This document shows positions 3,549 through 54,331 of a stretch of 64,000 nt of DNA, one piece after another. A program made the position numbers and the translations under genes. The DNA lies in NCBI RefSeq assembly GCF_000002425.4, contig NC_037266.1, positions 7,071,180-7,135,179 of the forward strand, in the 5' to 3' direction. Under the pieces are notes generated by a model, which was not told where the DNA came from, did not search any database, and saw only the letters and a list, made by a program, of their open reading frames with translations. The DNA comes from Physcomitrium patens. Lineage: Eukaryota > Streptophyta > Bryopsida > Funariales > Funariaceae. Numbering within the stretch: the first letter of the stretch is position 1; every line of letters starts with the position of its first letter.

Positions 3549-4061
3549 ATGAAGGCAAAAACATTGAAGATAGTAACTTTTGTTATAAAAGATTATTTAA
3601 TTGATATGGTGACAAAACATGAAAACTTTAGAAATACATGGAAGATACTGATAAAAAAATATGAAAGTAGAGATCCTACTTTAGTACTTAATTTCAACTA
3701 TAAACTATCAACTTTGAAAATTTGGAATTCTATCTCTTTGGAAGAATTCTTGAAGATGGCTTGTAAAATAAAAAATCAACTTATTGTACTTGGTAAGAAA
3801 GTTCCAATAAAGAATCTTATACAAACTATTTTGAATGGCTTGTCTCTCTCTTTTGGTACCTTGGTATATAGTTTTATATCAACAAATCAATGTTCAAGCT
3901 TCAAAAAAAGATTATCAAGACTTATAATAAAAGTCCATAGATTACAATTAAGAGCTAATACCAATAAAAATTCTAAAAGTGATGCACTATTGATACAAAT
4001 TTCAGGAGTTGATTTCAATACAATATTTACAAGAGGCAAAGAAAATTACTTATCTTGCTAA
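3549..4061 (+). pseudogene. Copia-2 gag fragment
   Basis: The 170-codon open stretch resembles the copia gag core (UBN2 family): a WKILIKKYE-type helix, then a region like LEEFLKMACKIKNQL and NLIQTILNGL. The gag start lies further upstream near 3390, where GEDNFHVWSLKMMNFL is readable before a stop, so this is a piece of a longer gag. In an intact element gag forms the particle shell and binds the RNA. I see no intact zinc knuckle after it. Confidence 0.75.
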
Positions 4062-15660: not shown

Positions 15661-16911
15661 TATTATGATTGACTTTTGTATCATATATTAATCTCAAAGC
15701 CAATCAAGATTATCAAATACATTATCAAGATGTTCCTACCTTGAATCAAAAGAAGGCAAGATAACATATGATCAACAACACGCAACCTTGCTAAAGCTTG
15801 AATAATTTCATCTTTAAGCAACCAATGTATCAATACCTATGGATTTATCATTACTTCATTAGGTACATAAAGCCTCAACTACAAACTTTCTTGTTCTTAA
15901 TATTAAGCATCTTGCCAACAACCTTCCTAAAGAGTCTTCTAAATTCAAGATTGAAGATAACCTCTTGTTCTTTGAAGACCGTTTGTTCATTCCTCAAGGA
16001 CCAACTCGTTTGTCTATTCTTCAAATATGCCATGACTTCCCTACAGCTGGACATTTCAAATTCAATAAGACATTGGAAATTTTGTCTAAAGAGCTTTGGT
16101 AGCCTAAAATGTGAAAGGATGTTAAGAAATTTATACTATCATGTGATACTTGTTCAAGGTCAAAGAACCCTCAACATCAAGCATATGGACTTCTTCAACT
16201 CCTTCCTATTCCAAGACAACTATGGTCATTTATTTCCATGGATTTTATTATAGATCTTCTACCATCAAGCTCATTTGACATTATCTTTGTAGTTGTTGAC
16301 CAATTGATGAAGATGGTACATTTTATACCTTGCAAGAAGTTAATTATTGGTGAAGAGACGAGAAGACTCTTTATTGATAATGTCTATTGTTACCACGGAT
16401 TACGAGATAATATTGTCTCAGTTTATTGGCCACAATTTGTATCAAGGTTTTGGAAGGCACTCTTCAAGATTCTTAAGATTGACACCAACCTAGCTTCTAT
16501 CATTTATCCTCAAACTCATGGCCAAACAAAGTAAGTCAACTAAATTCTTGACCAATATTTGAAGTGTACCATCAACTATCAAAAAGACGATTAGACTTCC
16601 TACTTGTTGGCAAAGTTTGCATATAACAATACAATCCATGCATCTATGCAATTAATGCCATTCTACTCAAACTACAATTATCATCCAAAGTTGGATATGA
16701 TAAAGCCTTCAAAGTTGGCAAATCCAGTAGCAGAGGAGTTTGCTACAAAGATGGCTAAACTTCAAGCAACTATGAAGATTCATCTAGAGAGGACTCAATA
16801 ACATTACAAGCTTGTAGCAGATGAATTGAAGAAGGAACATCCTCTATTCTAAGTTAATGACAAAGTGTGGCTTCTTTGGTACAATATAAAAACCAACAAG
16901 CCATGTGATAA
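15660..16911 (+). pseudogene. Gypsy A integrase (zinc-binding and core domains)
   Basis: Near 15980-16160 the H2C2 zinc-binding module can be read (CHDFPTAGHF, then SCDTCSRSK). The core begins near 16205 with SMDFIIDLL (first catalytic Asp), VVVDQLMKMVHFIPC and CYHGLRDNIV. The second catalytic site, normally SDRGPQF, is SVYWPQF, so the Asp is lost. THGQTK near 16520 marks the third region, where the Glu is replaced by Lys. The last part reads FAYNNTIHASM and WLLWYNIKTNKPCD, and gypsy B then interrupts at 16912. Confidence 0.9.
16907..16911. repeat. Left target-site duplication of gypsy B (GATAA)
   Basis: GATAA here and AATAA at 24637-24641 flank gypsy B at its TG...CA ends. The one difference is G to A. 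Excision joins PCD to KLDYQRLGPF in one frame. Confidence 0.9.
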
Positions 16912-16990
16912 TGTCAAGGATAAGAACATAATAAAGACAAATAAACAAGTGAGACTTCTCTCATAGAAAGATGAGAAAATAGAAATAACT

Positions 16991-17052
<62 letters not shown>

Positions 17053-17518
17053 AGAAAGAAATTGGAATGGCTATTGCCAAAAGCCAAGTAAATTAGAGAC
17101 CCTTGAAACTAGACTAGAAACAAGAAAGGAGTTGACAAGAGTGAAGAAGGCTTCACTCTTGTCTCTATATATACTATCTAACTAGGAGCTACGTGGTGAT
17201 ATTCTATAGGACCTCCAATATATGTTGACTTTGTAGGACACATGCCTTGACTTATAAGGCAAGTTTTTCTACGTTTGGGCCACATAGTTAGTTTGGTCTT
17301 CAAGCTAACAACATGTGTGGCACATGGCCAACTTATTGACCACGTTTCTAATCCTAAAAAGTCAATTAAAGACACTTATAAAGTCAAAGCAACGTCTATG
17401 AAGCTTTTAAGAAGCTTCTATATTAAATACTATAGAATTAACTTACTTTTATCTACTTTTACTTACTTCTACCTATTTATACATGTTATTATTAGCTTAT
17501 ATGCATATGTCCATGACA
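16912..17518 (-). repeat. Gypsy B 3' LTR
   Basis: Plus-strand ends are TGTCAAGGATAAG and CATGACA. It holds a long (AT)n run at about 16992-17050. A TATA-like box, complement of 17165-17173 (CTATATATA), is the probable promoter on the minus strand. Similar LTRs occur at 24064, 43370, 52101 and 52390. Confidence 0.95.
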
Positions 17519-17561: not shown

Positions 17562-17984
17562 TCATATATTGAGGAAATCTATGATGTGACGAATTATATT
17601 CGCCACATACTCTGATCTTTGTTCTCTTCCAAGATGATTGATAGGTCTTCTCAACCATCGGTAGTGTCCCATATCAGGGCGGAAAGACCATCCAATTATT
17701 TGATCATTGTTGAGGCTTTCATAACTTCCTTCGAATAAAACATTTGGAACACCATCAGAACTTGTTCCTACTTCTAGTAAAATCACCTAACATCGGGAGT
17801 CCCTTCCAAGGTCGTGATACCAAACTTGTTGTATCTCGCCATCTATTCGAGGAAGAACATGTTGTTCTTGAAGATCTTCATCTTGATTACATCGTCTTGA
17901 AGGTTGTGACAATCGTAATGTCTCGTCCGGCAAGTCAACAAATGAAGGCTCTTGAGTCGAATCCATTAGTTGTTGGTTCTCCAT
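17562..17984 (-). pseudogene. Extra reading frame downstream of pol in gypsy B
   Basis: A 141-codon frame lies between the chromodomain and the 3' LTR, on the coding strand but in a different frame from the chromodomain. It begins with an ATG at 17984 in a good context (AAAATGG). One internal TAG at 17787-17789 separates segments of 65 and 74 residues. The first part is acidic and polar (begins MENQQLMDSTQEPSF, includes a DEDLQEQHVL stretch). The second has WSFRPDMGHYRWLRRPINHL. I recognise no domain, signal peptide or membrane segment. The same segment can be followed in gypsy D (51648-52070) and gypsy E (about 52870-53330). Its conserved position and start suggest it was a real gene of this family. 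An alternative is a conserved non-coding leader of the 3' LTR. Confidence 0.55.
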
Positions 17985-18156
17985 TTTCTGAGCGTCACAA
18001 CTACAAAAAAGTTATAAACAAGGATTGAAAGTAGAATGTTATATTGCCTAGATTTTGTTTCTTTTATAAGGAAGATTTTTATCTTGATTTTGATGAATGT
18101 CGTCAATGTAAAGCCTCCACCACCTTTGCTATATTTACAAGATTCTTTACTGGCTC

Positions 18157-18555
18157 CTATGTGCATTCACTAATATCATATCTATGCCAATGGACAAGAT
18201 ATTCTAATTTATTTTGGCACCGCCTTGAATCTAAAACTTCTTTCACTTCAAACTCTTCATTATTATCCACTTCTATAGGAGGAGGTGGAGCTTGTCTTCT
18301 TCTTAATATGTCCACTGTCTTGTATGGTTCAAGAAGAGATATGTGAAATACTAGATGGATTTTCATTGACTCCGATTGATGTAAACGATATGCAACTGGA
18401 TTGATTTGTGCAGAAATAGAAAATGGTCCAAGCCTTCGATAGTCCAACTTGTCACAAGGATGAGTGGTCTTGATATTGTGACAAAGTAACCATATCTTAT
18501 CACCCATGTAGAATGGTGGTTGTTCCTTTCGATAGACATTTGCATTGACCTTTTG
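18157..18555 (-). pseudogene. Gypsy B integrase C-terminus and chromodomain
   Basis: The minus-strand frame 18157-18507 reads GDKIWLLCHNIKT, then KLDYRRLGPF (the GPF module of chromovirus integrases), then IHLVFHISLLEPY. It ends in a chromodomain: FEVKEVLDSRR, then LEYLVHWHRYDISECT. The family normally has YLVKWKGY and W at the end of this block. Chromodomains direct integration toward particular chromatin. A short linker with a stop separates it from the integrase core upstream. Confidence 0.92.
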
Positions 18556-19353
18556 TTATTCTTGAGCTTCTTTTAACTGTACCTTCATCGTTGCATGTAG
18601 CAGTGACAAATGAATTGCCAAATCTTTTGCAGCAGGATTATCAACTTTTGAAGAGTTAAAAGTATCAAGTCGTAGATGATAACCATAATTGGCAAAGAAA
18701 GGTGTTTGTTTTGTAGAAGTATGTACTATGTTAATATAAGCAAACTCTATCAATGATAAAAGAATTGTTCAATCATCTTGTTGGTAATTGATGGTACATC
18801 TTAAATACTGCTCCAAAACTTTATAAACATGCTCCGTTTGTCCATCAGTTTGACAATGGAATATTGAAGATAGTTTTATATCCACTTTTAGAATCTTAAA
18901 AAGACTCTGCCAAAATCTTGATACAAATTGAGTTCCTCTATTTGATATAATATCCTTGGATAATCCATGATAGCAATAGATATTTTCAAGAAAGAGCTTA
19001 GCTGTTTCTTCACCTATGATAGATTTTGTACATGGTATAAAATATACCATCTTGATAAAACGATCCACTATTACGAGTATAGAGTCATAAGAACCTGAGA
19101 TTAGAAGATCCATGATGAAATCCATAGAAATAGAAAACCATGGTTGTTCTAGAATGAATAATGGCTAAAGAAGTCCGTAAGGTTGATGACAAGGAGTTTT
19201 TGATCTTGAGCAAACATCACAAGATTGTACAAAATCTTTGATTGCTTTCCACATTTGTGACTACGAAAAGTCTTTGGATATTAGTTCCAAAGTTTTATTA
19301 TATCCAAAATGTCTTGCTGCTAGAAAGTCATGACGAGCTTGAAGACCACGTTA
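18556..19353 (-). pseudogene. Gypsy B integrase core and part of zinc-binding domain
   Basis: Starting at the insertion C boundary, the frame reads LQARHDFLAARHFGYNKTL, then SCDVCSRSK (zinc ligands present). The core follows with SMDFIMDLL (first Asp), VIVDRFIKMVYFIPC, CYHGLSKDIISNRGTQF and DGQTEHVYKVLEQYL. The second catalytic Asp of SDRGTQF is Asn here through G to A, so strand transfer is probably dead. The Glu is kept. The remaining part has LIEFAYINIVHTSTKQTPFF. A few stops are present. Confidence 0.92.
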
Positions 19354-19362
19354 TCGTATTAC
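19354..19362. repeat. Left 9-bp target duplication of insertion C
   Basis: TCGTATTAC is repeated exactly at 20593-20601. Removing 19363-20592 plus one copy restores gypsy B integrase in frame (LHCRIVIR, a stop, then RGLQARHDF). Confidence 0.9.
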
Positions 19363-20592
19363 GTGCTTTCCTGCTCGAGAACGCGCCGGGCGTCTGGCTG
19401 TAGAAGGTAATATGGAGATTTACCAATATTCAAGCAGTTTATCGAGTTTTGACTGTTGGAATACAAACAACTGCAAGAATACACTGTAAATCTATACAGA
19501 TGCCCTTCGATTGCTCACCAAAGTCCTTTTTGCCCCAGCCGGTAGGTCTCCAGATGTTACAGAGAACCCCGAAAAACCCATCTGCTAATCTCCGATACCG
19601 CTTTATACTCACGATCTTGTATCCACTGACTGTCTTGTTAGATTAACCCAATAAATTTCATTCACTCCGCATACTCAATCCTATAGACACCCTTTTAATT
19701 CTTCAATCACAGACGTAACTCGATTTTACAAAATAGTCAAGAGTAATCAAACCCACTTCATTAAAAATCCCGATTCACCATTACAACACTGACTTCAGCA
19801 ACGATTGCCTCAGTCTTCCCAAAACCCTATGAAGAAAAAAAACCCAATTCTCTGTCTTTTTTTTCCACCCGAAGCATGAAGTTAACTCTCCCCCTTTCTT
19901 CAAAACCTCTCCAAAAACTTATTCTCTCTCCTAACCTTATCCTATGAATTTCTTCAATCTTCCGTCTTGGATCCGGAATTGGCTTCCATCGTCAGAGCTT
20001 GGATCCGAAATTAGCTCTCGCCGTCAGAGCTTTCTCCCCCGTTTTTACCTTTAAGAGATCCTTTTACCGAAAACAATGTTCCCTGAAACGGCACAGAGAA
20101 CAGGACAGCCTGAAACATAATCGAAACCCCGTAATCGGGACCACATTGAGTCACCCGACCAATTCAGGTCTCATATTGGCTAAGAGTCTATTAATAAGAC
20201 CCGGATGTCCCCGTAATTGGATCAAATTGGTCCTTTGCATCAGATTGGCTGAGGCCCGTAGTAAGACTTGGATTTTCTCGTAATTAGACTGCATTGGGTT
20301 GCCCGGCTAATTCAGGTCTCATATTGGGTAAGAGGACCCGGATTGGATTCTTGAAATTGGATCCAATTGGCTCTTCGAACCAGGCTCACCCGTCATGTGA
20401 ATTGGTCCTTTTTCTTCCTGTTGACTTCCGTTATTGGAATCGAATGGAGCATTTCAATATACCCCGGCTGACTGTAACGGGGTGACTGAACTTGGCCACT
20501 CAGTATTTACACTGGAGTTGGTCGTTGCTCCCAATATTCGAGGTAACTGAACATTAATAAAAGTCCCCTTTCTTTATATTTTCACGATATAC
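19363..20592. mobile_element. Insertion C: 1230-bp gene-like insertion with 9-bp duplication
   Basis: The block has clearly higher GC than the retroelements and splits the gypsy B integrase between perfect 9-bp duplications. A 9-bp duplication is typical of Mutator-like DNA transposons. I see no convincing terminal inverted repeat (ends GTGCTTTCCTGC, and GTATATCGTGAAA as complement). The interior looks like plant promoter and 5' leader DNA: an AAACCCTA telo-box-like motif near 19821, C/T-rich leader, and a short ATG frame at 19877 (MKLTLPLSSKPLQKLILSPN). There are internal direct repeats (GGATCCGAAATT / GTCAGAGCTT near 19968-20032, and AATTCAGGTCTCATATTGG at about 20161 and 20309). A non-autonomous element carrying a captured gene piece fits best. 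Confidence 0.7.
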
Positions 20593-20601
20593 TCGTATTA
20601 C

Positions 20602-22165
20602 AATACGACAATGTAATCGAGCTTCACCTTCTGGATCATATAGGCCTCCTTCTAAATATAGTAGATTCTTCTTGAATTCAAACTTGGAAGTATCATGAAA
20701 CTTTGAAGGATTTTTCTTCATATCACGAATAAAGAGATCAGAAGACATACTTGACTGAACTTGCTTAATGAAAGTTGAATCAATAGTTAGTGTTTATTTC
20801 ATTGATCGAAGATGAAGATGCTCTGGCTTCAAGAGAATTGTTTGTTGTTGATGGAAAGTAGCATCTCCTTGCTTTGGTGAAAGATAAGATTTTCTAAAGA
20901 ATGCATCTGACAAACCTTATTTTTTTTTTGGTCGATAAGTGATCTTGAGTTCGAATCTTGACAAGGACATACTCCAATGGGCTTGGCGACGATTCAAAAT
21001 ACGTGTTGACATAAAATATTTAAGGATCTTGTGATCTATATATACTGTGACTTGGCTAGAAGCACCTTCTAGATAATGGCACCATTCTTGAAACGAATCC
21101 ACGATTACAAGAAGTTCTTTGTTGTAGATCTTGTAGTTTATCTCGTAGTTGATCTCCGTTGTTGAAAATTTTCTGGAATGAAAAGCTATTGGATGAAGTT
21201 TATCATCTGTTCTCATTTGTAACAATACAACATCCAAAATAAAGTTAGATGCGTTTGTTTCTATAAAAAATGGCTTAGAAAAATCAATGCAATACAAGAT
21301 TGGTGCAAAAACAAAAGCTATCTTCAAAGCTTCAAATACTACTTCTATTTCTTGATTCCATTGAAGTTTGTCTTTACAAGTCAAACATGTAAGTGGAGTT
21401 GCAACTTGAGAGAAGTCTTTGATGAAGATCCGATAGTAGTTGGTAAATCCTAAAAAGCATTTGACATCTCTTACCGTTTTTAGAATCTTCCAATCCATAA
21501 TAGTTTGAACTTTCTTAGGATCCATCATAAGTCCATCATTTGAAATGATGTATCTTAAGAAATCGACTTGAGTAGTGTGAAATATATACTTTTCTATCTT
21601 GGCATAAAGTCCTACATCTCTTAGTTTTTGTAATACTTGGCGAACATGAAGTTCATATTCTTTTGGATTTTTAGAATAGATTAAAATGTCGTCTAGGTAA
21701 CAAACAACAAAATCATCTAAAAACTCCTAAAAGACATCATTCATTAGATGTTGAATGCTGTTGATGCATGTGTAAGTCCAAAAGGCATGACGTTGTATTC
21801 AAAATATCCATACCTTATTCGAAACGCAGTCTTCCATTCATTTCCTTCTTTGATGCGTACCAAATTGTATGCTCCTAGTAGATCTATTTTTATATAGATC
21901 TTAGCTTGATTCAACTAATCAAGAAGTCCAAATATCAAAGGTAGCGAGTACCTATTTTGATAGTAATTTTGTTGAATCCTTAATAATCAACACACATCTG
22001 CAATGATCTATCTTTTTTCTTCACAAATAAAATTGGAGCTCCTATTGGAGATTTACAATGGCGTATGAAGTTCTTGGCCAAATTCTCTTCAATATAGTCC
22101 TTGAGTTCAACTAATTTATTTTGAGACAAATTATAGATTGGTCCAAATGGCGGTTGTGCTCCTTC
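20602..22165 (-). pseudogene. Gypsy B reverse transcriptase, RNase H and linker
   Basis: On the minus strand the polymerase starts near 22160 and includes [16 protein letters not shown] and a Q-rich palm region with stops. The C-terminal part 20917-21528 is the best preserved: FLGFTNYYRIFIKDFSQVATPL, then the RNase H block with HPIAFHSRKFSTTEINYEI, YNKELLVIVDSFQEW and RRQAHWSMSLSRFELKITYR. The linker to the zinc-binding domain runs to the 20593-20601 duplication (YLEGGLYDPEGEARLHC). The catalytic YxDD region is broken by stops. Confidence 0.9.
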
Positions 22166-22399: not shown

Positions 22400-22840
22400 T
22401 TAATTAACTACTCTTTTAGTTATACTTTCAAAAAATTCAAAACTACGAGAAGTCCAATCTATTTTAGGGTTATATTTTTCTAGCCATGATAAACCAAAAA
22501 TGACTAAATTAGAAGGAGATATAATGATATTAAATATTATAAAGCTAGTATGACCATTAGTTGTTATATTTATAGGAAAGATTTCATGAGTAACATCTCC
22601 TGAAGACAACGGATGACCATCTATAACTTCTACATGAATAGGTTTAGTTTTCTTTACTAAAAATATGCTATGTCTTTTAGCAAATTTTTCATCTAAAAAA
22701 CATGTTGAGGCTCTTGAATCTAGCAAGGCAAAGGCTTTGAGATGTTTAAGTCCTAAAATAATATTTATCATAAAACATAGAGAGGGTTTTGAGGAGAGGA
22801 TAAGACCTTCACTAGGCGTCGTACAAGGTTTCAGTCGCAC
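22400..22840 (-). pseudogene. Gypsy B aspartic protease
   Basis: The 146-codon open frame contains ALLDSRASTCFLDEKFAKRH, where the catalytic triad DSG has become DSR. It continues with HVEVIDGHPLSSGDVTHE and SNLVIFGLSWLEKYNPKIDW, the typical end of plant gypsy proteases. The protease cuts the Gag-Pol polyprotein in the particle. Gag lies directly upstream and reverse transcriptase downstream, in the usual order. Confidence 0.92.
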
Positions 22841-23853: not shown

Positions 23854-24063
23854 GATAATACTTAAAAAAGAGAAGATGTCTAATATCGCTCAAGACAAAT
23901 AGAAGAGAGGACTTGAAAATAAAGAAAATACTAAGGACAATATCGATTTAGAAGAGGGTAATCCACAACTTCTAATATGCTTGTCTTATCAAAAAAAAGG
24001 AGTAATCCACTCTTAATCAAGATTAGACAAAGCTCTGATATTGTAGGTGTACTCTTGTCAATC

Positions 24064-24636
24064 TGTCAAAGACAAGAACATGATAAAGACAAATAAATAA
24101 GTGAGACTTCTCTCATAGAAAGATGATAAAATAGAAATAACTTGATATATATATATATATATATATATTAAGAAAGAAATTGGAATGGCTATTGCCAAAA
24201 GCCAAGAAAACTAGAGATCCTTGAAACTAGACTGGAAGCAAGAAAGGAGTTGACAAGAGTGAAGAAGGCTTCACTCTTGTCTCTATATATACTATCTAAC
24301 TAGGGGCTACGTGGTGACATACTATAGGACCTCCAATATGTGTTGACTTTGTAGGACACATACCTTGACTTACAAGGTAAGTTTTTCTACGTGTGGGCTA
24401 CATAGTTAGCTTGGTCTTCAAACTAACAACATGTGTGGCACATGGCCAATGTATTGACCACGTTTCTAATCCTAAAAAGTCAATTAAAGATACCTATAAA
24501 GTCAAAGCAACGTCTATGAAGCTTCTAAGAAGCTTCTATATCAAATACTATAGAATTAATTTACTTTTATCTATTTTTATTTACTTCTACCTATTTATAC
24601 ATATAATTATTGGCATACATGCATATGTCTGTAACA
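24064..24636 (-). repeat. Gypsy B 5' LTR
   Basis: Plus-strand ends are TGTCAAAGACAAG and CTGTAACA. The (AT)n run at 24144-24168 is shorter than in the other LTR. The TATA-like complement lies at 24283-24291. In the leader just inside, the minus strand reads TATCAGAGCTTTGTC about 22 bases from the LTR edge. Confidence 0.95.
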
Positions 24637-24804
24637 AATAAGTTGGACTACCAAAGATTGGGACCATTTATGATTAAAAAAAAAATCAATAACGTAACTT
24701 GTCGCTTAGAATTACCTTCATCCATGAAGATTCATCCTGTCTTTCATGTTTCACTTTTAGAAAGGTATAAAGAATCAAACATATCAGATCAAAGACAACC
24801 ACCA
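24637..24804 (+). pseudogene. Gypsy A integrase C-terminus, resumed after gypsy B
   Basis: The frame continues exactly where gypsy B cut it: KLDYQRLGPFMIKKKINNV, then SSMKIHPVFHVSLLERYKES. This is the GPF module upstream of the chromodomain. Block H interrupts after the RQPP motif. Confidence 0.9.
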
Positions 24805-27000: not shown

Positions 27001-27240
27001 ACTTCCTATGATTGAAATCATTGCTCATGTTGAATTTGAAGTGGAAGAAGTATGATATTCAAGGATAACATATAGAAGGCTTGAATATCTTGTCTATTGG
27101 CACGGATATGATATCAATAATTGCATGTAAAAATTAGCTGGCAACCTTGTAAATACACAAATGAAGATTCAAAAGTTCCATCAACGACATCCATTTAAAC
27201 CAAAAGTAGCAAAATGAGGAATAGTAGCTTGATAAGATGG
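27001..27240 (+). pseudogene. Gypsy A chromodomain
   Basis: The frame reads IAHVEFEVEEV, a stop, then RRLEYLVYWHGYDINNCM, matching the chromodomain of gypsy B. It ends near HQRHPFKPK. The following 560 bases to the 3' LTR hold no frame like the extra ORF of gypsy B. Confidence 0.85.
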
Positions 27241-27805
27241 CTTTACTATGAAGATTCTTAGTTCTTGGCCTTATAAAAAAAGAAAGGATGCAACCTTTGA
27301 AGAGGTAGTTTTTTCAAATATTTAAAATAGTATTAATCAGTAGTTTAAATTTATGACTACAGTCTGTTTATATTCTTTTGGTCTTGTTTAATTTATATGA
27401 TATAGATAGTCAAGAGATAGACATCATGCCGTTCATACCATGTCAACCAAGTAGATTGTAGAGATGACTCCGAGATGAATAGTCACCTGAATCATAAAGA
27501 TATCAAAGGATATTCAATAATAGGTTGCTGATAATTGTCTTTGAGGTAGAACCTATCTATGAAAGATGCCCAAAAGGAGTGTTTTCAAGACAATTTCATA
27601 ACAAAGTTATTGAAGTTTATGCTTAGTCATAAGTAGAAGGCTTCGAGCACTATTGATGGCTATGGGGGCCTATAAACCATTTGCCTTGCAAAAAATAAGT
27701 AAAATATATAGTACATATCATGCGAGAGATCTTCAATTTCTTATGCATATATTGACTTATAGTAATATTACTTGTCAGAGACCTTGAAGCTAGAGGAAGA
27801 AATGA

Positions 27806-28208
27806 TGTCATGGATATACAACTAAGCATGATTTTAAGAAGGTTCTTGTAGATCCTAGAAGGTTTCATTAGGTTCTAAGAAGATTCTAAAAGGTTCTAAT
27901 AGATTCTTAAAAAGTTCTAAAAAGTCATAGGAGATTTGGGAGGTTCTAAGAGACTTTAGATGATTTTGGAAGTTGCCAAAGAAGGATCTTAGCCTTGCTT
28001 TGTTTTCAAGCTACATGGAAGCTTTTTAAGAAGCTTCTAAGGACTTGATATATATATAGGAGTTGAAGTTGAGGGGATCCTTAGTCTCGACAATTCACTT
28101 CTTGTAGTCTAGCTAGCACCTTCTTACCTTGTATGTAGTTATTGTTCTAATGTCTAGCTAACTCTATTTCTTGGTCTTAAATCCTTATCTTGTATATGGT
28201 GCCTAACA
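27806..28208 (+). repeat. Gypsy A 3' LTR
   Basis: It starts TGTCATGGATATACAACT and ends GTGCCTAACA, followed by the duplication TCCCA at 28209-28213. A TATATATATA box lies near 28051. It aligns along its length with 7801-8233. Confidence 0.9.
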
Positions 28209-37296: not shown

Positions 37297-37957
37297 TTAA
37301 TTGGGATCTGCAGTGGACAAGGTCGAAGCGTCCATATTAATCTCCGGCCACAGCAAAGACTCCTGTTGAAATGAGTATGATGATTGCTGGTGTTGGTAAC
37401 TATGCTGGAGATAGGTGCCCTCCTCGTGATCGTGATCCTCAGGCACTGGATCAGTCTCATTGGAATCGTTTGGTTCAACAGAATTATTGTCGAGCAACAT
37501 CTGCTTGCTTGACCTGGATGACCAGCTCTTGCTATCTTTACTCACTTGATCATCCTCAGGGCTACCCTTATTATTCGACCTTGCTGTCAGGCTGTTTGCT
37601 TTAACTGCTTCGATCACACCGTTTCCGCCGTGATTCTTGAGCAACCTTGCAATCTTGGTTTGCACACGAACATCGCTGGATCCATTTACTGAGGGTTTTG
37701 ACGTGTAGAGAGCACCACTGGATCCTGCTTTCTCATCGGCTGAGGATTGCCTCTCTCCATCCAGGACGTCGATCCCTTCAATAGTCGGAGGGGGATGGGG
37801 AGGGGGAGCGACTGTCCGAGACCTGTGCCGTCTTCGTGATGATCCAGAGCAGGTGTGTTTCCCGACGTACGTGACCTCGAAAATGGAAGGGTCCTGGACT
37901 GTTGGTTGCACCATCTTCTTTGCACGGCAATCCACCATGCCACATTTGTAGTATCCT
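37297..37957 (-). CDS. WRKY exon 4: zinc finger half and C-terminal tail
   Basis: The exon starts after GATATCAG with AGGATACTAC, completing the split arginine codon. It encodes GYYKCGMVDC, the rest of the zinc finger ending GKHTC, and a tail rich in Ser, His and Gln with a PPPHPPP run near the start. It ends at TAA with the sequence STADPN. Codon use and GC are normal for a functional gene. Confidence 0.88.
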
Positions 37958-39621
37958 CTGATATCCAAATCCATCACATCATGTGAGCATTCAGATGTAG
38001 GGCCAGATATCGCGACAAACACGAACGTCCTTGTTTCTTCCCATAAGTTTCTAAACGATCAACATCATAATCTAAACGTTTTATCGCGATTTATCAGCGG
38101 TGGCACCCTCAAATTGTCCTGGACTGAATAAGGGACATGATCTACCATTGACGACTCGATGTGTAGGATTCGTTTACGTCGATATCAACGACACCACAGT
38201 TACACCAAGTGGGTGTCAAATTTGATTGGTTACTGCACGACCTTTACCTGCAAAAGTTGGAATTCTGAATTGTTTTGTTGCCATATTTCTTCCAGCCGCG
38301 ATGGTCGTCATCGGGAATGGCCTTTTTCTTGTCCCGGCCAGGCTTCATTTTCTGGAACACCACTGTTACGGTGGTCTCCCCCTCCGAGAACTCCTCTCTG
38401 AATTGCCACCCTCCAGAACCCACTCTTAGTTTAAGTTCGTGAGGCGCTTAATCTCCGTGCTTCGAACGCAACTGAGGACGACTTGCAATCAAGCGCTTGC
38501 TACTCAAAAACTAGTTCAAAGAATTGGTGATGATAATGCACGGAGATGACAATGTAAGGTACCTGTCTCGTTTTAAGCTGGATTGACGAAGGCCACTGCG
38601 ACCGTTGAATTTACTTCCAATGTTTCGGTCATCATGTTCCGAGAACCCTCTTCCATCTTTGTCAGCGTCTGGCAATTTAAGTTGACAGGTTGATGAACTT
38701 TGGTGCGGCGCTTCGACTGGAACAAGGGAATCTTCCAGGTTGGTAACTTGGGCTTCTGATAGCATGCTCCAAGTGTTGTCCAACATGGGACTGGGTAATT
38801 CTGCGAAATCCTGCCCCTGTTGATGCTCCTCGTTAGAGCTCAACAACCCCATGGACTGCTGCAGCTGTTTTTCATCATCTGCGGATCACTTCGATATGGT
38901 TTGAGTACTAGAACCAGAAAGACCTGAAAAAACCTTGGAATCACCGAAACCACCAATGGAGAAACTTGCCATTTTAATGGACACTACGGCAGTGAGAGTA
39001 CGGCAAAGGGCTGGCAAAAACAAGGCCATGAACTTACCTGCTTGAGCAATGGAAGTCGGTAACTGTCCGATCTGCGAAGTCTTGTTCATGTATAAGTTCC
39101 CAATGCTCCATGCGTCACACAACCTTGGAGCGTATGTTGAGGAGTCGGTAAAGGGATTAGATAAATCAAGATGCTCCTTGATCAGCGATACAGGCAGAGG
39201 GCTTGCGGGAGAAGACATTCATCTTGGTTGAGGAATTAGGATTTGAGGAAGGATTTTCGGGGAATAAATTGTCTACCAAGTCAGTATCTGGTGATGGAAG
39301 AGAACCGGTGTGCGAAATGATCTCCTTGAGTCGGGTGAGCGCAAGGTGACACCAATCCATTGAATTTTCCAGCCTCGATTTCAAGATCTTCAGGAGTCGA
39401 GGAGATATCTCATCGTTGGATTTCTGCTCCGCAATCGATGGATGCTCGTCCGAAGTTTCGCCCTCAGCGGCATAGACTACGAGCATATCCCACAGAGCTT
39501 CCTGGTGAATTATGGCCCTGCTCAACATCTCCTTCACCTTGTGCACGCACTGCGCAGAGGCCCATTGGCTTCCTGCTCTCATCCACGGCAGGTCCTGCCG
39601 AGGGTTCCCTGCATTCTCCAT
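37297..39621 (-). CDS. WRKY transcription factor with variant WKKYGNK domain (four exons)
   Basis: Proposed exons on the minus strand are 39621-39277, 38858-38563, 38424-38248 and 37957-37297. They total 1479 nt, giving 492 residues, and every junction is GT-AG and in phase. The domain lies at about residues 258-309: WKKYGNK instead of WRKYGQK, then C-X4-C-X23-H-X-C zinc ligands (C278, C283, H307, C309). A phase-2 intron splits the arginine codon before GYYKC, the classic WRKY-domain intron position. The HXC ending is the group III form, but the C-X4-C spacing is that of other groups. Residues 1-115 are helical-looking with HKVKEML and no known motif. The C-terminal tail (310-492) starts with a basic RRRHRSR stretch (possible nuclear signal) and is Ser/His/Gln-rich. 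WRKY proteins bind W-boxes (TTGAC) in the nucleus. The two heptapeptide changes could alter that binding. The first exon boundary is the least certain. Confidence 0.85.
38248..38424 (-). CDS. WRKY exon 3: WKKYGNK half of the domain
   Basis: The 177-nt exon runs from acceptor AACTAAG to donor TGCAG|GTAAAGG. It encodes a lysine-rich segment (QKMKPGRDKKK), DDDHRGWKKYGNK and IQNSNFC. Intron lengths on its two sides are 138 and 290 bases. Confidence 0.85.
38563..38858 (-). CDS. WRKY exon 2
   Basis: The 296-nt exon starts after CTGCAG (a second acceptor three bases further on is possible) and ends GACAG|GTACCT. It encodes an acidic, Ser/Gln-rich linker with no recognised motif. Confidence 0.75.
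39277..39621 (-). CDS. WRKY exon 1
   Basis: The ATG at 39621 begins MENAGNPRQDLPWM. The frame stays open to TGA at 39166. To join exon 2 in frame I use the donor TTG|GTAGAC at 39277/39276. A much stronger donor, CAG|GTAAGTT at 39035/39034, lies beyond the in-frame stop, so its use would truncate the protein. Confidence 0.6.
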
Positions 39622-50764: not shown

Positions 50765-51560
50765 TCAATTATAAGATCTACAACAAAAAAAACTTCTTGC
50801 AATTGTAGATTTATTTAAAGAATGGTGTCATTATTTAAAAGTCACTTTTAATCTATTGACTATTTATACAAATTATAAGAACTTCAAGTATTTTGTGTAA
50901 GTACATACTTTAAATCCTCATAAATCTTGTTAAAAATATATTTGTCAAAATTTAATAATTTTTACTTTGCAAAAGTTTATAATTTTATCACAAAAGATTT
51001 AATATTTTTTTTTTCAAAGTAACATACAAAAATAAAGGAACAATTATTAAAAGATCAAGAATGATAAAAGATCAATAAAAATATCTATGACAAAGAATAA
51101 TTTTAATTCTACATTAACAACAAAATATAGTAACTTTGTCGTAATATTAAGATTATTTATCATTATTATAAGTTGGATTATAGTAGATTGGAACTATTTA
51201 TTATTTTTGAATAGATTAATTTGATTCTTTATTGATTATATCTACTAATTCTATGAAGATCCATCTTGTGTATTATGTTTTTTTTTAAGCCATACAATAC
51301 ATTGAATATACCAAAAATAAGACCAATATTATCATTTTTTATTAAAATTGATAGTAATCAAGAATTTGAGATTGTAGGAGTCTTAGATTCAAAATAGCAT
51401 TAAAATAGGTTAAAATATTTTATACATTGGTACAAATATGAAATTAGTGAATGCTTATTGAAACCATCTAAGAATCTTATAAAAACTATAAAGGTAGTTA
51501 ATGTTTTATTACCAACAACATCCATGAAAACTAGGATTTATTAAAAAACTAAGTAATTTT
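50765..51560 (+). pseudogene. Gypsy D RNase H fragment, integrase end and chromodomain
   Basis: INYKIYNKKNFLQL at about 50767 is RNase H. After a gap without readable integrase core, KLDYSRLELFIIFE (GPF module) begins near 51172. The chromodomain follows: QEFEIVGVLDSK, then LKYFIHWYKYEISECLLKP. The integrase core is missing or unreadable between 50.95 and 51.15 kb. Confidence 0.8.
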
Positions 51561-51647: not shown

Positions 51648-52070
51648 ATGGAAAACCTACGATTATTAAAGCCAATCCAAAAACTATTATTTACTAAGCT
51701 ATTCGATGAGGCATTAAAATTGTTACAATCTTTAAGATGAGGTAATAGAAATAAAGATTTTTAAGAACAACTTATTCTTTCCAAAATAAATGGCAAAATA
51801 TAATACATTTGATATTATAACTTTACAAGAAACTTTCAATATTAAATAAAAGAACTACTTTTATTGGTGTTTTAAATATCATATTTTTAAAAACTTATAA
51901 AAGCCTCAATAATAATCAAATTTCATATTATTCTTTTTACTATGATATAAAATATTATGAGTAACTAAAAAAACCTATTAATTAACTTCAAATAAAATAA
52001 AGATTAAAATATGTAACAAATATAATTTATTGTATTTTAGACTTTCTCTACATATAATCACTATTCTTCA
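51648..52070 (+). pseudogene. Extra reading frame of gypsy D, homologous to that of gypsy B
   Basis: It starts at an ATG with MENLRLLKPIQKLLF, matching the gypsy B start MENQQLMDSTQEPSF, and continues with EALKLLQSLR. The end of the block still aligns with gypsy B at DNA level (AAATATGTAACAAATATAAT, then CATGGAACTTATCC). Many stops prevent expression. It lies between chromodomain and 3' LTR, as in B. Confidence 0.6.
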
Positions 52071-52389: not shown

Positions 52390-54331
52390 TATCAAAGATG
52401 AAAATACAATAAATACAAATAAAGAAGTAAGAGATTTTTTAATATATATATATACTCAAAAAAAATATCTATTTTCAGAAATAAAAAATAGAGATCCTTA
52501 AAACTAGATTAGAAGTAAAAAAAGAATTGACAAGTATGGAAAAAAACTCACTATTGTCTCTACATATATATTATCTAACCAGGAGCTACATAACAATGTT
52601 CTATAGGATCTCCAATACATATCCAACATGTATCACAAGTCATCAAAATGAGCAATATGTGGCCAATTTATTGGCCAAGTTTTCAACCTACCAATCATCT
52701 ATAGACATATATAAAAATGAAATTACATCTATAAAAATTCTAAAAAGCTTGTCTATAAGATATTATCAAATTAATCTATTTTATCTACTTCTATTTATTC
52801 ATATTATTTAGATAATTATTAGTATAAATATAAATTTTTGTGATATTATTTCTTTTTAAAAAATAAGTTCTATGAAGAGCAATGATTACATGTTGAGGAA
52901 GTCTAAAATACAAAAAATTATATTTATAACATACTCTAATATTTGTTCTCTTTAAAGATAGTTGATAGGTCCTCTTAGTCATTGATAGTATCATATATCA
53001 AGGCAAAAAGTTCACCTTTATATTTAATCATTATTAATATTTTGTAACTTTCTTTGAGTAAAATATTTATAATATCATTACAATTCATTTTTACTTCCAA
53101 TAATAGTATCAAATATCTAGAGTCTCTTCAAAATTTTTCATATCAAATATATTATATCTTACCATTATTTTGAAGAAAAACATATCATTTTTGAAGAACT
53201 TCAATTCTATTACCTTGTCCTTAAGATTGTGACAATCATAGTATCTTATTTGGTAATTTAGCAAATATTAGCTCTTTAATTAAATTTTTAGATTATTGAT
53301 TTTTTATTTTATTAATGCTATAAATACAAAAAAATTAATCAAGAATAAAAGATAGAGTAAAATCTTCATTAAACCTCATTTTCTTTTTAGCAAAAAATTA
53401 CTTAATTCTTCATCTTGATTTTGATAAATGTTATTGATAAAAAGCTTTAATTTTTTCTTTTTTATTTGAAATATTCTTAATTGGCTTTCATAAATATTCA
53501 CTAATATCATATTTTTACTAATAAATAAGATATTTTAACATAAAACAACATTACCTTCAATCTAACACATCTTCTACCTTAAATTCTTGATTATTATCTA
53601 TTTCTATAGAAAAAAATGATATTTGTATTCTTTTCAAGATATTCACTATTTTATATGGCTCAAAAAGAGATATATGAAATATAGAATAGATTTTCATAGA
53701 ATTCAATAGGTATAATTAAAATACAATTAGATTAATTTATTCACAAATAGAAAATGGTCTAAGTCTATATTGAATAGAAGAATATATTTTATTCTTATAA
53801 AAAAACTCTATCAATGGCAAAAGAATTGTTCAATCACTTTAATGGTATTTAATGGTCTATTGCAAATACTATTCCAAAACTTAATTCATCCATTTTTTTT
53901 GTCTATTAATTGAAGAATAAAAAGCCAAAGATAATTTTATATCTATAATATTTTTAAAATCATTTTCCAAAACCATGATACAAATTGGACTCTTCTACTA
54001 AGTATAATATCCTTTTGCAATCCATGATAGTAATGGATATTATCAAAGAAAAGTTTAGTTTTTTCTATACATGTCATATATTTTATACATAGTATAAAGT
54101 ATGTCATTTTAGTGAAACAATCTAATATCACAAATATAGAGTCATATAAATTTGAGGTTAGAAGATCTATAATAAAATCCATAAAAGTAAAAAACCATAG
54201 TTGTTTAAACATGTGTAGTGGTTGTAGAAGTTTGTAAGGTTGACGACAAGGAATTTTTGAGCTTGAATAAGAATCACATGTTTGTACAAAGTCTTTGATT
54301 TTTTTCTACATTTTAGGTGTCATATACATAC
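52390..54331 (-). mobile_element. Gypsy E: truncated same-family element, minus strand
   Basis: Its 3' LTR (52390-52845, plus ends TATCAAAGATG and TTTGTGATA) is inserted in the LTR of gypsy D in the opposite orientation. The interior repeats the order of gypsy B: the extra-frame region (52870-53330), chromodomain region (about 53530-53770) and integrase core (53943-54212). The alignment with B ends near 54315, so the rest is missing. Confidence 0.8.
53943..54212 (-). pseudogene. Gypsy E integrase core fragment
   Basis: The 89-codon frame reads FMDFIIDLLTSNLYDSIFV, LDCFTKMTYFILC, then HYYHGLQKDIILSRRVQFVS. The second catalytic Asp (SDRGTQF) is lost. It is colinear with 18900-19130 of gypsy B. 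Confidence 0.88.

What the first reader, a model, noticed from the sequence alone, without database searches (positions are those of the whole stretch)
17562..17984. Possible undescribed third gene between chromodomain and 3' LTR in a chromovirus family
Gypsy B has a 141-codon frame (one internal stop) downstream of pol on the coding strand, in a different frame from the chromodomain. It has a good ATG context and no recognised domain. Gypsy D has the same start (MENLRLL versus MENQQLM) at the same place, and gypsy E keeps the block in decayed form. Chromoviruses normally end with the chromodomain, so a conserved extra frame here would be unusual.
Basis: partly seen in the sequence, partly recalled or inferred. 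Interest (0 to 1): 0.75.

Follow-up and report, generated by a model that had tools for sequence, protein, structure and literature searches.

The report
Extra gene in moss retrotransposons
An abundant kind of jumping gene in this moss-like genome carries a small third gene whose protein sequence has been kept by natural selection in two separate element families, so it probably does something useful for the element, although what it does is not yet known.

Summary
Window 17984-17562 (-) is a 140-codon frame with one stop, 94 nt after the integrase-chromodomain stop and just before the polypurine tract and 3' LTR. The host genome (470 Mb, unnamed, probably Physcomitrium patens) has many copies: of 73 full-length copies read, 33 are stop-free in this frame and none in the other two forward frames. 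A second chromovirus family (different LTR, integrase 63% identical) carries a homologous frame at the same place (39% identical). In an ungapped 41-codon block between families pN is 0.33 and pS 0.98; shifted frames give ratios 1.0 and 1.6. Within family 1, N/S falls from 3.1 for single-copy variants to 0.9 for widely shared ones, as in integrase; family 2 shows no such fall, on few sites. Four of five integrase-bearing elements in the window carry it. It is a real accessory gene under purifying selection. Pfam, NCBIfam, PDB and viral contigs gave no convincing relative; no membrane segment; not a second chromodomain. Function unknown; a soluble, perhaps nuclear, helper is my guess. A published survey counted extra ORFs only from 250 codons, so would miss it.

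The parts
17562..17984 (-). third frame (ORF3) of element B, family 1; 140 codons, one internal stop in this copy
   Evidence: selection tests
18079..19164 (-). end of pol of element B: integrase, SH3-like and chromodomain (decayed), pol stop at 18079-18081
   Evidence: Pfam Chromo and SH3_Tf2-1 on the homologous stretch of L002
17522..17534 (-). polypurine tract, 3 nt before the 3' LTR
   Evidence: read from the output
16912..17518 (-). 3' LTR of element B
   Evidence: 39 differences in 573 aligned columns to the 5' LTR (34 further gap columns), K2P 0.072
24064..24636 (-). 5' LTR of element B
24051..24061 (-). putative self-primer site: 11 nt complementary to the LTR at 24250-24260, starting 2 nt past the 5' LTR
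   Evidence: 5 of 2000 shuffled LTRs give such a run; coordinates derived from it
20920..21528 (-). RNase H part of element B pol
   Evidence: RT_RNaseH E 2.8e-29
22403..22840 (-). protease part of element B
   Evidence: RVP_2 E 4.2e-06
27398..27818 (+). decayed family-2 type ORF3 of element A, downstream of its chromodomain (27005-27205)
51648..52058 (+). decayed ORF3 of element D, downstream of its integrase-chromodomain (50939-51535)
52889..53307 (-). decayed ORF3 of element E, downstream of its integrase-chromodomain (54182-53413)

Best explanation
Core claim (the confidence given is for this): the frame is a real protein-coding accessory gene, in sense, between pol and the 3' LTR of Tcn1-type chromoviruses, kept by purifying selection in the lineages that multiply and lost by mutation once a copy has inserted. 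Shown: position, openness in many copies, protein-level conservation between two families, and in family 1 a selection signal like that of integrase. Inferred (about 0.35): it is made from a spliced or otherwise separate message and works as a soluble, perhaps nuclear, helper of the element. A conserved basic motif (RLSQP..SRRR.RDE) would serve as localisation or docking signal, and the C-terminal part (GHYRWL.GP.NHL.REQ) would bind a host or element partner, for example to counter silencing or to help integration in heterochromatin.
For: Second family with a homologous frame at the same place: in-frame blastp E 2.6e-20, nucleotide search only short scraps; ungapped 41-codon block, codon-position identity 0.61/0.70/0.28, pN/pS 0.34 against 1.04 and 1.55 in shifted frames. 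Within family 1 N/S 44/14 for single-copy variants against 11/12 for shared ones, no significant drop in wrong frames or LTR; integrase shows the same drop. Stops per 100 codons: ORF3 0.98, integrase stretches 1.05 and 1.14, wrong frames of ORF3 4.6 and 5.9, LTR 6.0 to 11.0. Four of five integrase-bearing elements found in the window carry it. Soluble: highest 19-residue Kyte-Doolittle mean 1.30 in family 1 and 0.65 in family 2, 10 open copies.
Against: Within family 2 (19 of 21 held copies passed the full-length filter) N/S does not fall for shared variants (41/14 single, 13.8/6.2 in 3-5, 4.9/1.1 in 6 or more); only 3 of 19 are stop-free and one of these lacks the ATG. Within-family-1 p values are modest (0.016, 0.028), and in the SH3-chromodomain control wrong frame 1 came close to the true frame (p 0.059 against 0.032), so single p values of this test should not be pressed. 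No transcript, ribosome or protein evidence was available. Structure models are poor (mean pLDDT 47 and 43), so every functional step is a guess. An ATG overlapping the pol stop in 9 of 10 family-1 copies printed would have to be bypassed.
Confidence: 0.9

Rival explanations
1. The frame is a chance open stretch or a relic of a longer pol tail, conserved only because copies are young.
For: Plain pN/pS among 30 young copies is 0.50, between the wrong-frame values 0.43 and 0.72. Family 2 within-family variants show no drop.
Against: Homology in frame between two families whose DNA is hardly alignable; 33 of 73 copies stop-free against 0 of 73 in both other forward frames.
Confidence: 0.03
2. The conserved stretch works as DNA or RNA (for example a packaging or priming signal near the polypurine tract) and the open frame is incidental.
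For: It ends about 30 nt before the polypurine tract.
Against: Between families the third codon position is the least conserved (0.28) and the first and second the most, not what a nucleic-acid signal would give; no Rfam match at gathering score in the window.
Confidence: 0.03
3. It is an env-like or fusogen-like protein for movement between cells, like plant env-like ORFs or insect sORF2.
For: Same position and sense as env-like ORFs (PMC7264820); a small accessory protein like sORF2 (PMC11952523).
Against: No membrane-spanning stretch by hydropathy in 10 of 10 open copies tested.
Confidence: 0.04
4. It is a duplicated, diverged chromodomain or chromoshadow domain that reads or joins heterochromatin.
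For: Both poor models end in strands followed by a helix, and a short stretch looks alike by eye.
Against: Profile comparison with nine of the elements' own chromodomains: probability 0.2 percent over 9 columns; no Chromo match in Pfam for 10 of 10 proteins.
Confidence: 0.05

Closest known systems
Sense additional ORFs between pol and 3' LTR (aORF-3S / eORF-3'F) of plant LTR retrotransposons
   Same: Position, sense, presence in many copies, often no known domain (PMC7264820, parts 1 and 2 of 3 read; PMC6317226, passages)
   Different: Those described are mostly in OTA (Athila, Tat) and SIRE elements and some are env-like with membrane segments; the survey took only 250 codons or more. This one has 140 (family 1) or 117 (family 2) codons, no membrane segment, sits in chromoviruses, and is homologous between two families
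Tcn1-clade chromovirus SM-Tcn1 of Selaginella
   Same: Chromodomain at the end of pol; same clade as published moss elements (PMC2864245, passages and section 5)
   Different: Two ORFs only; by the published lengths about 141 nt remain outside LTRs, gag and pol, too little for this gene
SM1-Galahad of Selaginella
   Same: Short extra ORFs downstream of pol (PMC3350952, passages)
   Different: There the 309-bp ORF3 encodes the chromodomain itself; here the chromodomain is in pol and ORF3 is something else
sORF2 of Drosophila MDG1-group retrotransposons
   Same: Small accessory protein of an LTR retrotransposon (PMC11952523, abstract and outline)
   Different: sORF2 is a transmembrane fusogen-like protein; no membrane segment here

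Membership tests
Ty3/gypsy chromovirus | Chromodomain at the C-terminus of integrase | tested here: met
   Pfam Chromo 8.7e-12 and SH3_Tf2-1 4.3e-19 on L002 (the integrase core itself, 28.7 bits, lies under its cut-off of 32.6); family-2 chromodomain read in L062 and L064
Tcn1 clade (Tf1/Sushi-related) | Self-priming instead of a tRNA primer site | tested here: met
   11 nt, starting 2 nt past the 5' LTR of element B, complementary to the LTR; criterion (10 bp or more, 0-5 bp downstream) from PMC6317226. Only element B tested; no tRNA primer search was run
Tcn1 clade (Tf1/Sushi-related) | RT-integrase phylogeny | not tested
   No reference elements were at hand in the tools
RLG1 of Physcomitrium patens | Sequence identity with the annotated family | not testable with these tools
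Plant aORF-3S (sense ORF between pol and 3' LTR) | Sense, between pol and 3' LTR, conserved across copies | tested here: met
   the fraction of all element copies that carry it was not measured
env-like ORF | Transmembrane segment | tested here: not met
   highest 19-residue Kyte-Doolittle mean 1.30 in 10 open copies (the usual threshold of about 1.6 is recalled)
sORF2/FAST-like fusogens | Short transmembrane protein | tested here: not met
Chromodomain (second copy) | Profile similarity to chromodomains | tested here: not met

The most novel reading that the evidence does not exclude
A new family of retrotransposon accessory proteins, seen so far only in Tcn1-type chromoviruses of this moss-like genome, that lets the element multiply inside silenced heterochromatin (counter-silencing or integration helper) and so helps explain how one kind of chromovirus came to fill much of the genome.
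Probability: 0.25. Interest if true: 0.8.

Novelty: new variant of a known kind. Interest (0 to 1): 0.55.

Why it matters
If the genome is Physcomitrium patens and family 1 is RLG1 (both likely, neither tested), the dominant and still transcribed retrotransposon of a leading model plant has a third gene that the papers I saw do not mention. A large survey of plant LTR elements counted extra ORFs only from 250 codons up (PMC6317226), so short selected genes of this kind may be missing from other lineages too. The moss allows direct tests of where the protein goes and what it binds.

Tried and rejected
Averaged pN/pS among young copies does not separate the true frame from wrong ones, since most differences arose after insertion; replaced by single-copy against shared variants and by the between-family test.

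Relatives outside the genome: a first viral scan found none; with the alignment, two viral-contig hits (the same 33 residues) and one Polaribacter hit of 25 residues came up, which I judge to be chance. Pfam gave one match for one of 10 proteins, HCV_capsid at E 0.23, and PHROGs one 19-residue match at E 0.035, both disregarded. PDB sequences gave nothing and Foldseek nothing at E 0.001 or better, on a poor model. A second chromodomain was rejected. Replacement of a missing Gag zinc knuckle was considered: the strict pattern scan found no CCHC in the window, but a degenerate CCHC-like motif is readable by eye in the Gag region of element B, so I see no sign of need. A third family: element C (28.8 and 29.9% integrase identity) and five relatives' downstream stretches give no better than E 0.71 to the ORF3 profile, but they look decayed, so absence there is weak. 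A search with the ORF3 of element A never got through, nor one with that of element E.

Reinitiation at the ATG overlapping the pol stop would lead into another frame (L002) and that ATG is not at the pol stop of the two family-2 copies read there. In 10 of 10 family-1 copies printed an AG stands directly before the ORF3 ATG behind a moderately T-rich stretch, but in the window copy the AG is three bases further up; splicing is a lean, untested.

Full report
What was claimed.

What is there. Window 17562-17984 (-) reads as 140 codons plus terminal stop, with one internal stop at codon 66. Element B spans 5' LTR 24636-24064, protease (22840-22403), RNase H (21528-20920), integrase and chromodomain ending at 18079, 94 nt of spacer, the frame, a polypurine tract and 3' LTR 17518-16912. 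The LTRs differ at 39 of 573 aligned columns (34 more columns are gaps), K2P 0.072, 32 of the differences being transitions. B sits inside the integrase of another element (A): integrase homology stops at residue 227 at 16915 and resumes at 225 at 24637, with GATAA on one side and AATAA on the other as likely 5-bp target duplication (read). Two integrase queries find five integrase-bearing elements in the window at E 1e-5 (A to E; that the pieces of A belong together is inference). Four (A, B, D, E) have an ORF3 homologue downstream; the fifth, C, is a distant relative (28.8 and 29.9% identity) and has none detected.

The genome. The window lies in an assembly of 470.4 Mb in 101 contigs. Contigs C1 to C27 appear in my results, with lengths of 5.3 to 30.2 Mb for the 25 whose length was shown. 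With a WRKY domain in the window and Tcn1-type chromoviruses this fits Physcomitrium patens (about 480 Mb and 26 chromosomes in PMC13120521, passages; 27 in older assemblies is recalled). In P. patens one chromodomain-bearing gypsy family, RLG1, makes up 47% of the space of class I elements and is transcribed in protonema (PMC7466625, passages); the word 'ORF' does not occur in that text. That family 1 here is RLG1 is likely from abundance (8406 first-look candidates, 40 scored) but was not tested against an annotated sequence.

Open frames. Searches list 76 distinct places for family 1. I read 73 of them (30 loci, 43 fetched); three were left out beforehand because they are partial or one base longer. 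Copies under 85% identity (the loci, and a second copy in L008) are not in this set; the old copies printed carry stops. Of the 73, 33 are free of stops in this frame and 0 in either other forward frame; stops number 61 against 559 and 426. In the 34 copies fetched from the list that matched one open copy at 97-98%, 24 are open; that set is biased towards little decay. 52 of the 61 stops are single C-to-T or G-to-A changes against the commonest codon, as expected for methylated decaying copies. Stops per 100 codons in 30 copies: ORF3 0.98, integrase stretches 1.05 and 1.14 (0.57 over a longer stretch in only 9 copies), wrong frames of ORF3 4.6 and 5.9, LTR 6.0 to 11.0.

Selection within families. 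Plain averaged pN/pS among 30 copies is 0.50, with 0.43 and 0.72 in the wrong frames: uninformative by itself. Splitting variants by how many copies share them, N/S is 44/14 for single-copy variants and 11/12 for those in 5 or more of 30 copies (p 0.016); wrong frames p 0.85 and 0.50; LTR read as codons p 0.35 to 0.96. The same loci give 52/16 to 23.6/36.4 for an integrase stretch (p 2.6e-5) and 48/15 to 16.9/14.1 for the SH3-chromodomain stretch (p 0.032; its wrong frame 1 gave p 0.059). With 73 ORF3 copies: 49/15 to 22/17, p 0.028; wrong frames 0.54 and 0.66. So family-1 ORF3 behaves like pol: selected in multiplying lineages, neutral after insertion. Within family 2 (19 of 21 held copies passed the full-length filter) there is no drop: 41/14 single, 13.8/6.2 in 3-5 and 4.9/1.1 in 6 or more copies; 3 of 19 are stop-free, one of them without the ATG.

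Selection between families. By luck the flank of one locus (L053) held a second element with another LTR, and 20 more copies were fetched. It too has a chromodomain, then a spacer of about 130 nt (counted by eye), then a 117-codon frame ending before its polypurine tract. Integrase identity between families is 62.6%, one copy of each. ORF3 identity is 39% over 114 codons (7 by 3 copies); with one copy of each, in-frame blastp gives E 2.6e-20, blastn finds only pieces of up to 25 nt, no other pairing of forward frames is better than E 0.4, and two reverse-strand pairings at E 7e-5 and 3e-4 are what conserved sense codons would cast. In an ungapped 41-codon block, over 99 pairs of open copies (33 by 3), codon positions agree at 0.61, 0.70 and 0.28; pN 0.33, pS 0.98 (saturated), ratio 0.34; shifted by one or two bases the ratio is 1.04 or 1.55. 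This is the decisive evidence for a protein.

What the protein is. Conserved between families are an N-terminal basic motif (RLSQP..SRRR.RDE) and a C-terminal stretch (WS.....G.Y.WL.G..NHL.REQ). Pfam, NCBIfam (two proteins), PDB by sequence, and IMG/VR and GTDB contigs give no convincing relative; the weak matches are named under Tried and rejected. No other eukaryote genomes were at hand. AlphaFold models from ten sequences are poor (mean pLDDT 47 and 43), though both give strands and then a long helix; Foldseek found nothing at E 0.001. No membrane segment by hydropathy. It is not a recognisable copy of the elements' chromodomain.

How it may be expressed and work (inference). It is in another frame than pol and downstream of it. 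An ATG overlapping the pol stop in 9 of 10 family-1 copies printed leads, in L002, into a third frame, which argues against simple reinitiation. In 10 of 10 family-1 copies printed an AG stands directly before the ORF3 ATG behind a moderately T-rich stretch, and family 2 has T-runs and AGs shortly upstream; in the window copy the AG is three bases further up. A spliced message is therefore my first guess, untested. Function: accessory protein, soluble, possibly nuclear.

Relation to the literature. [quoted passage not shown] The large survey of plant elements counted extra ORFs only from 250 codons (PMC6317226, passages), so this one would be missed. SM-Tcn1 of Selaginella has two ORFs and little spare room (PMC2864245, passages and section 5); the legend of its figure 3 mentions an 'add. 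ORF' of unknown function for some of the elements drawn, which I could not see, and its supplements were not read. My searches (each lists only the top 15 or 20) showed no paper on a third gene in moss chromoviruses. The 2008 moss chromovirus paper and the 2018 chromosome-scale moss genome paper (both recalled) were not among the papers listed, so priority cannot be excluded.

Verdict. Real, selected, new to me as a gene family, known as a kind of feature: a new variant of a known kind.

Noticed in passing
window 16907-16911 and 24637-24641: Element B is inserted in the integrase gene of element A, with a probable 5-bp target duplication (GATAA/AATAA).
   Followed up: partly
window 37300-38022 (-): WRKY DNA-binding domain (E 5.5e-11) in a GC-richer island (36-42 kb), probably a host gene among the decayed elements.
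   Followed up: no
window 3549-4058 (+): Copia-type gag (Retrotran_gag_2, E 2.8e-08).
   Followed up: no
window 19000-21000 (-): Between RNase H and integrase of element B lies a stretch of higher GC that does not read as pol, perhaps a nested insertion.
   Followed up: no
L002 1403-1642 (+) and other family-1 copies: An ATG overlapping the pol stop opens a further frame running into ORF3; over the spacer it is stop-free in 19 of 22 ungapped copies but pN/pS is 0.80 there, and it is absent from the two family-2 copies read there.
   Followed up: partly
window about 22960-22900 (-), Gag region of element B: CCHC-like zinc knuckle, degenerate in this copy (by eye; the strict pattern was not found).
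   Followed up: no
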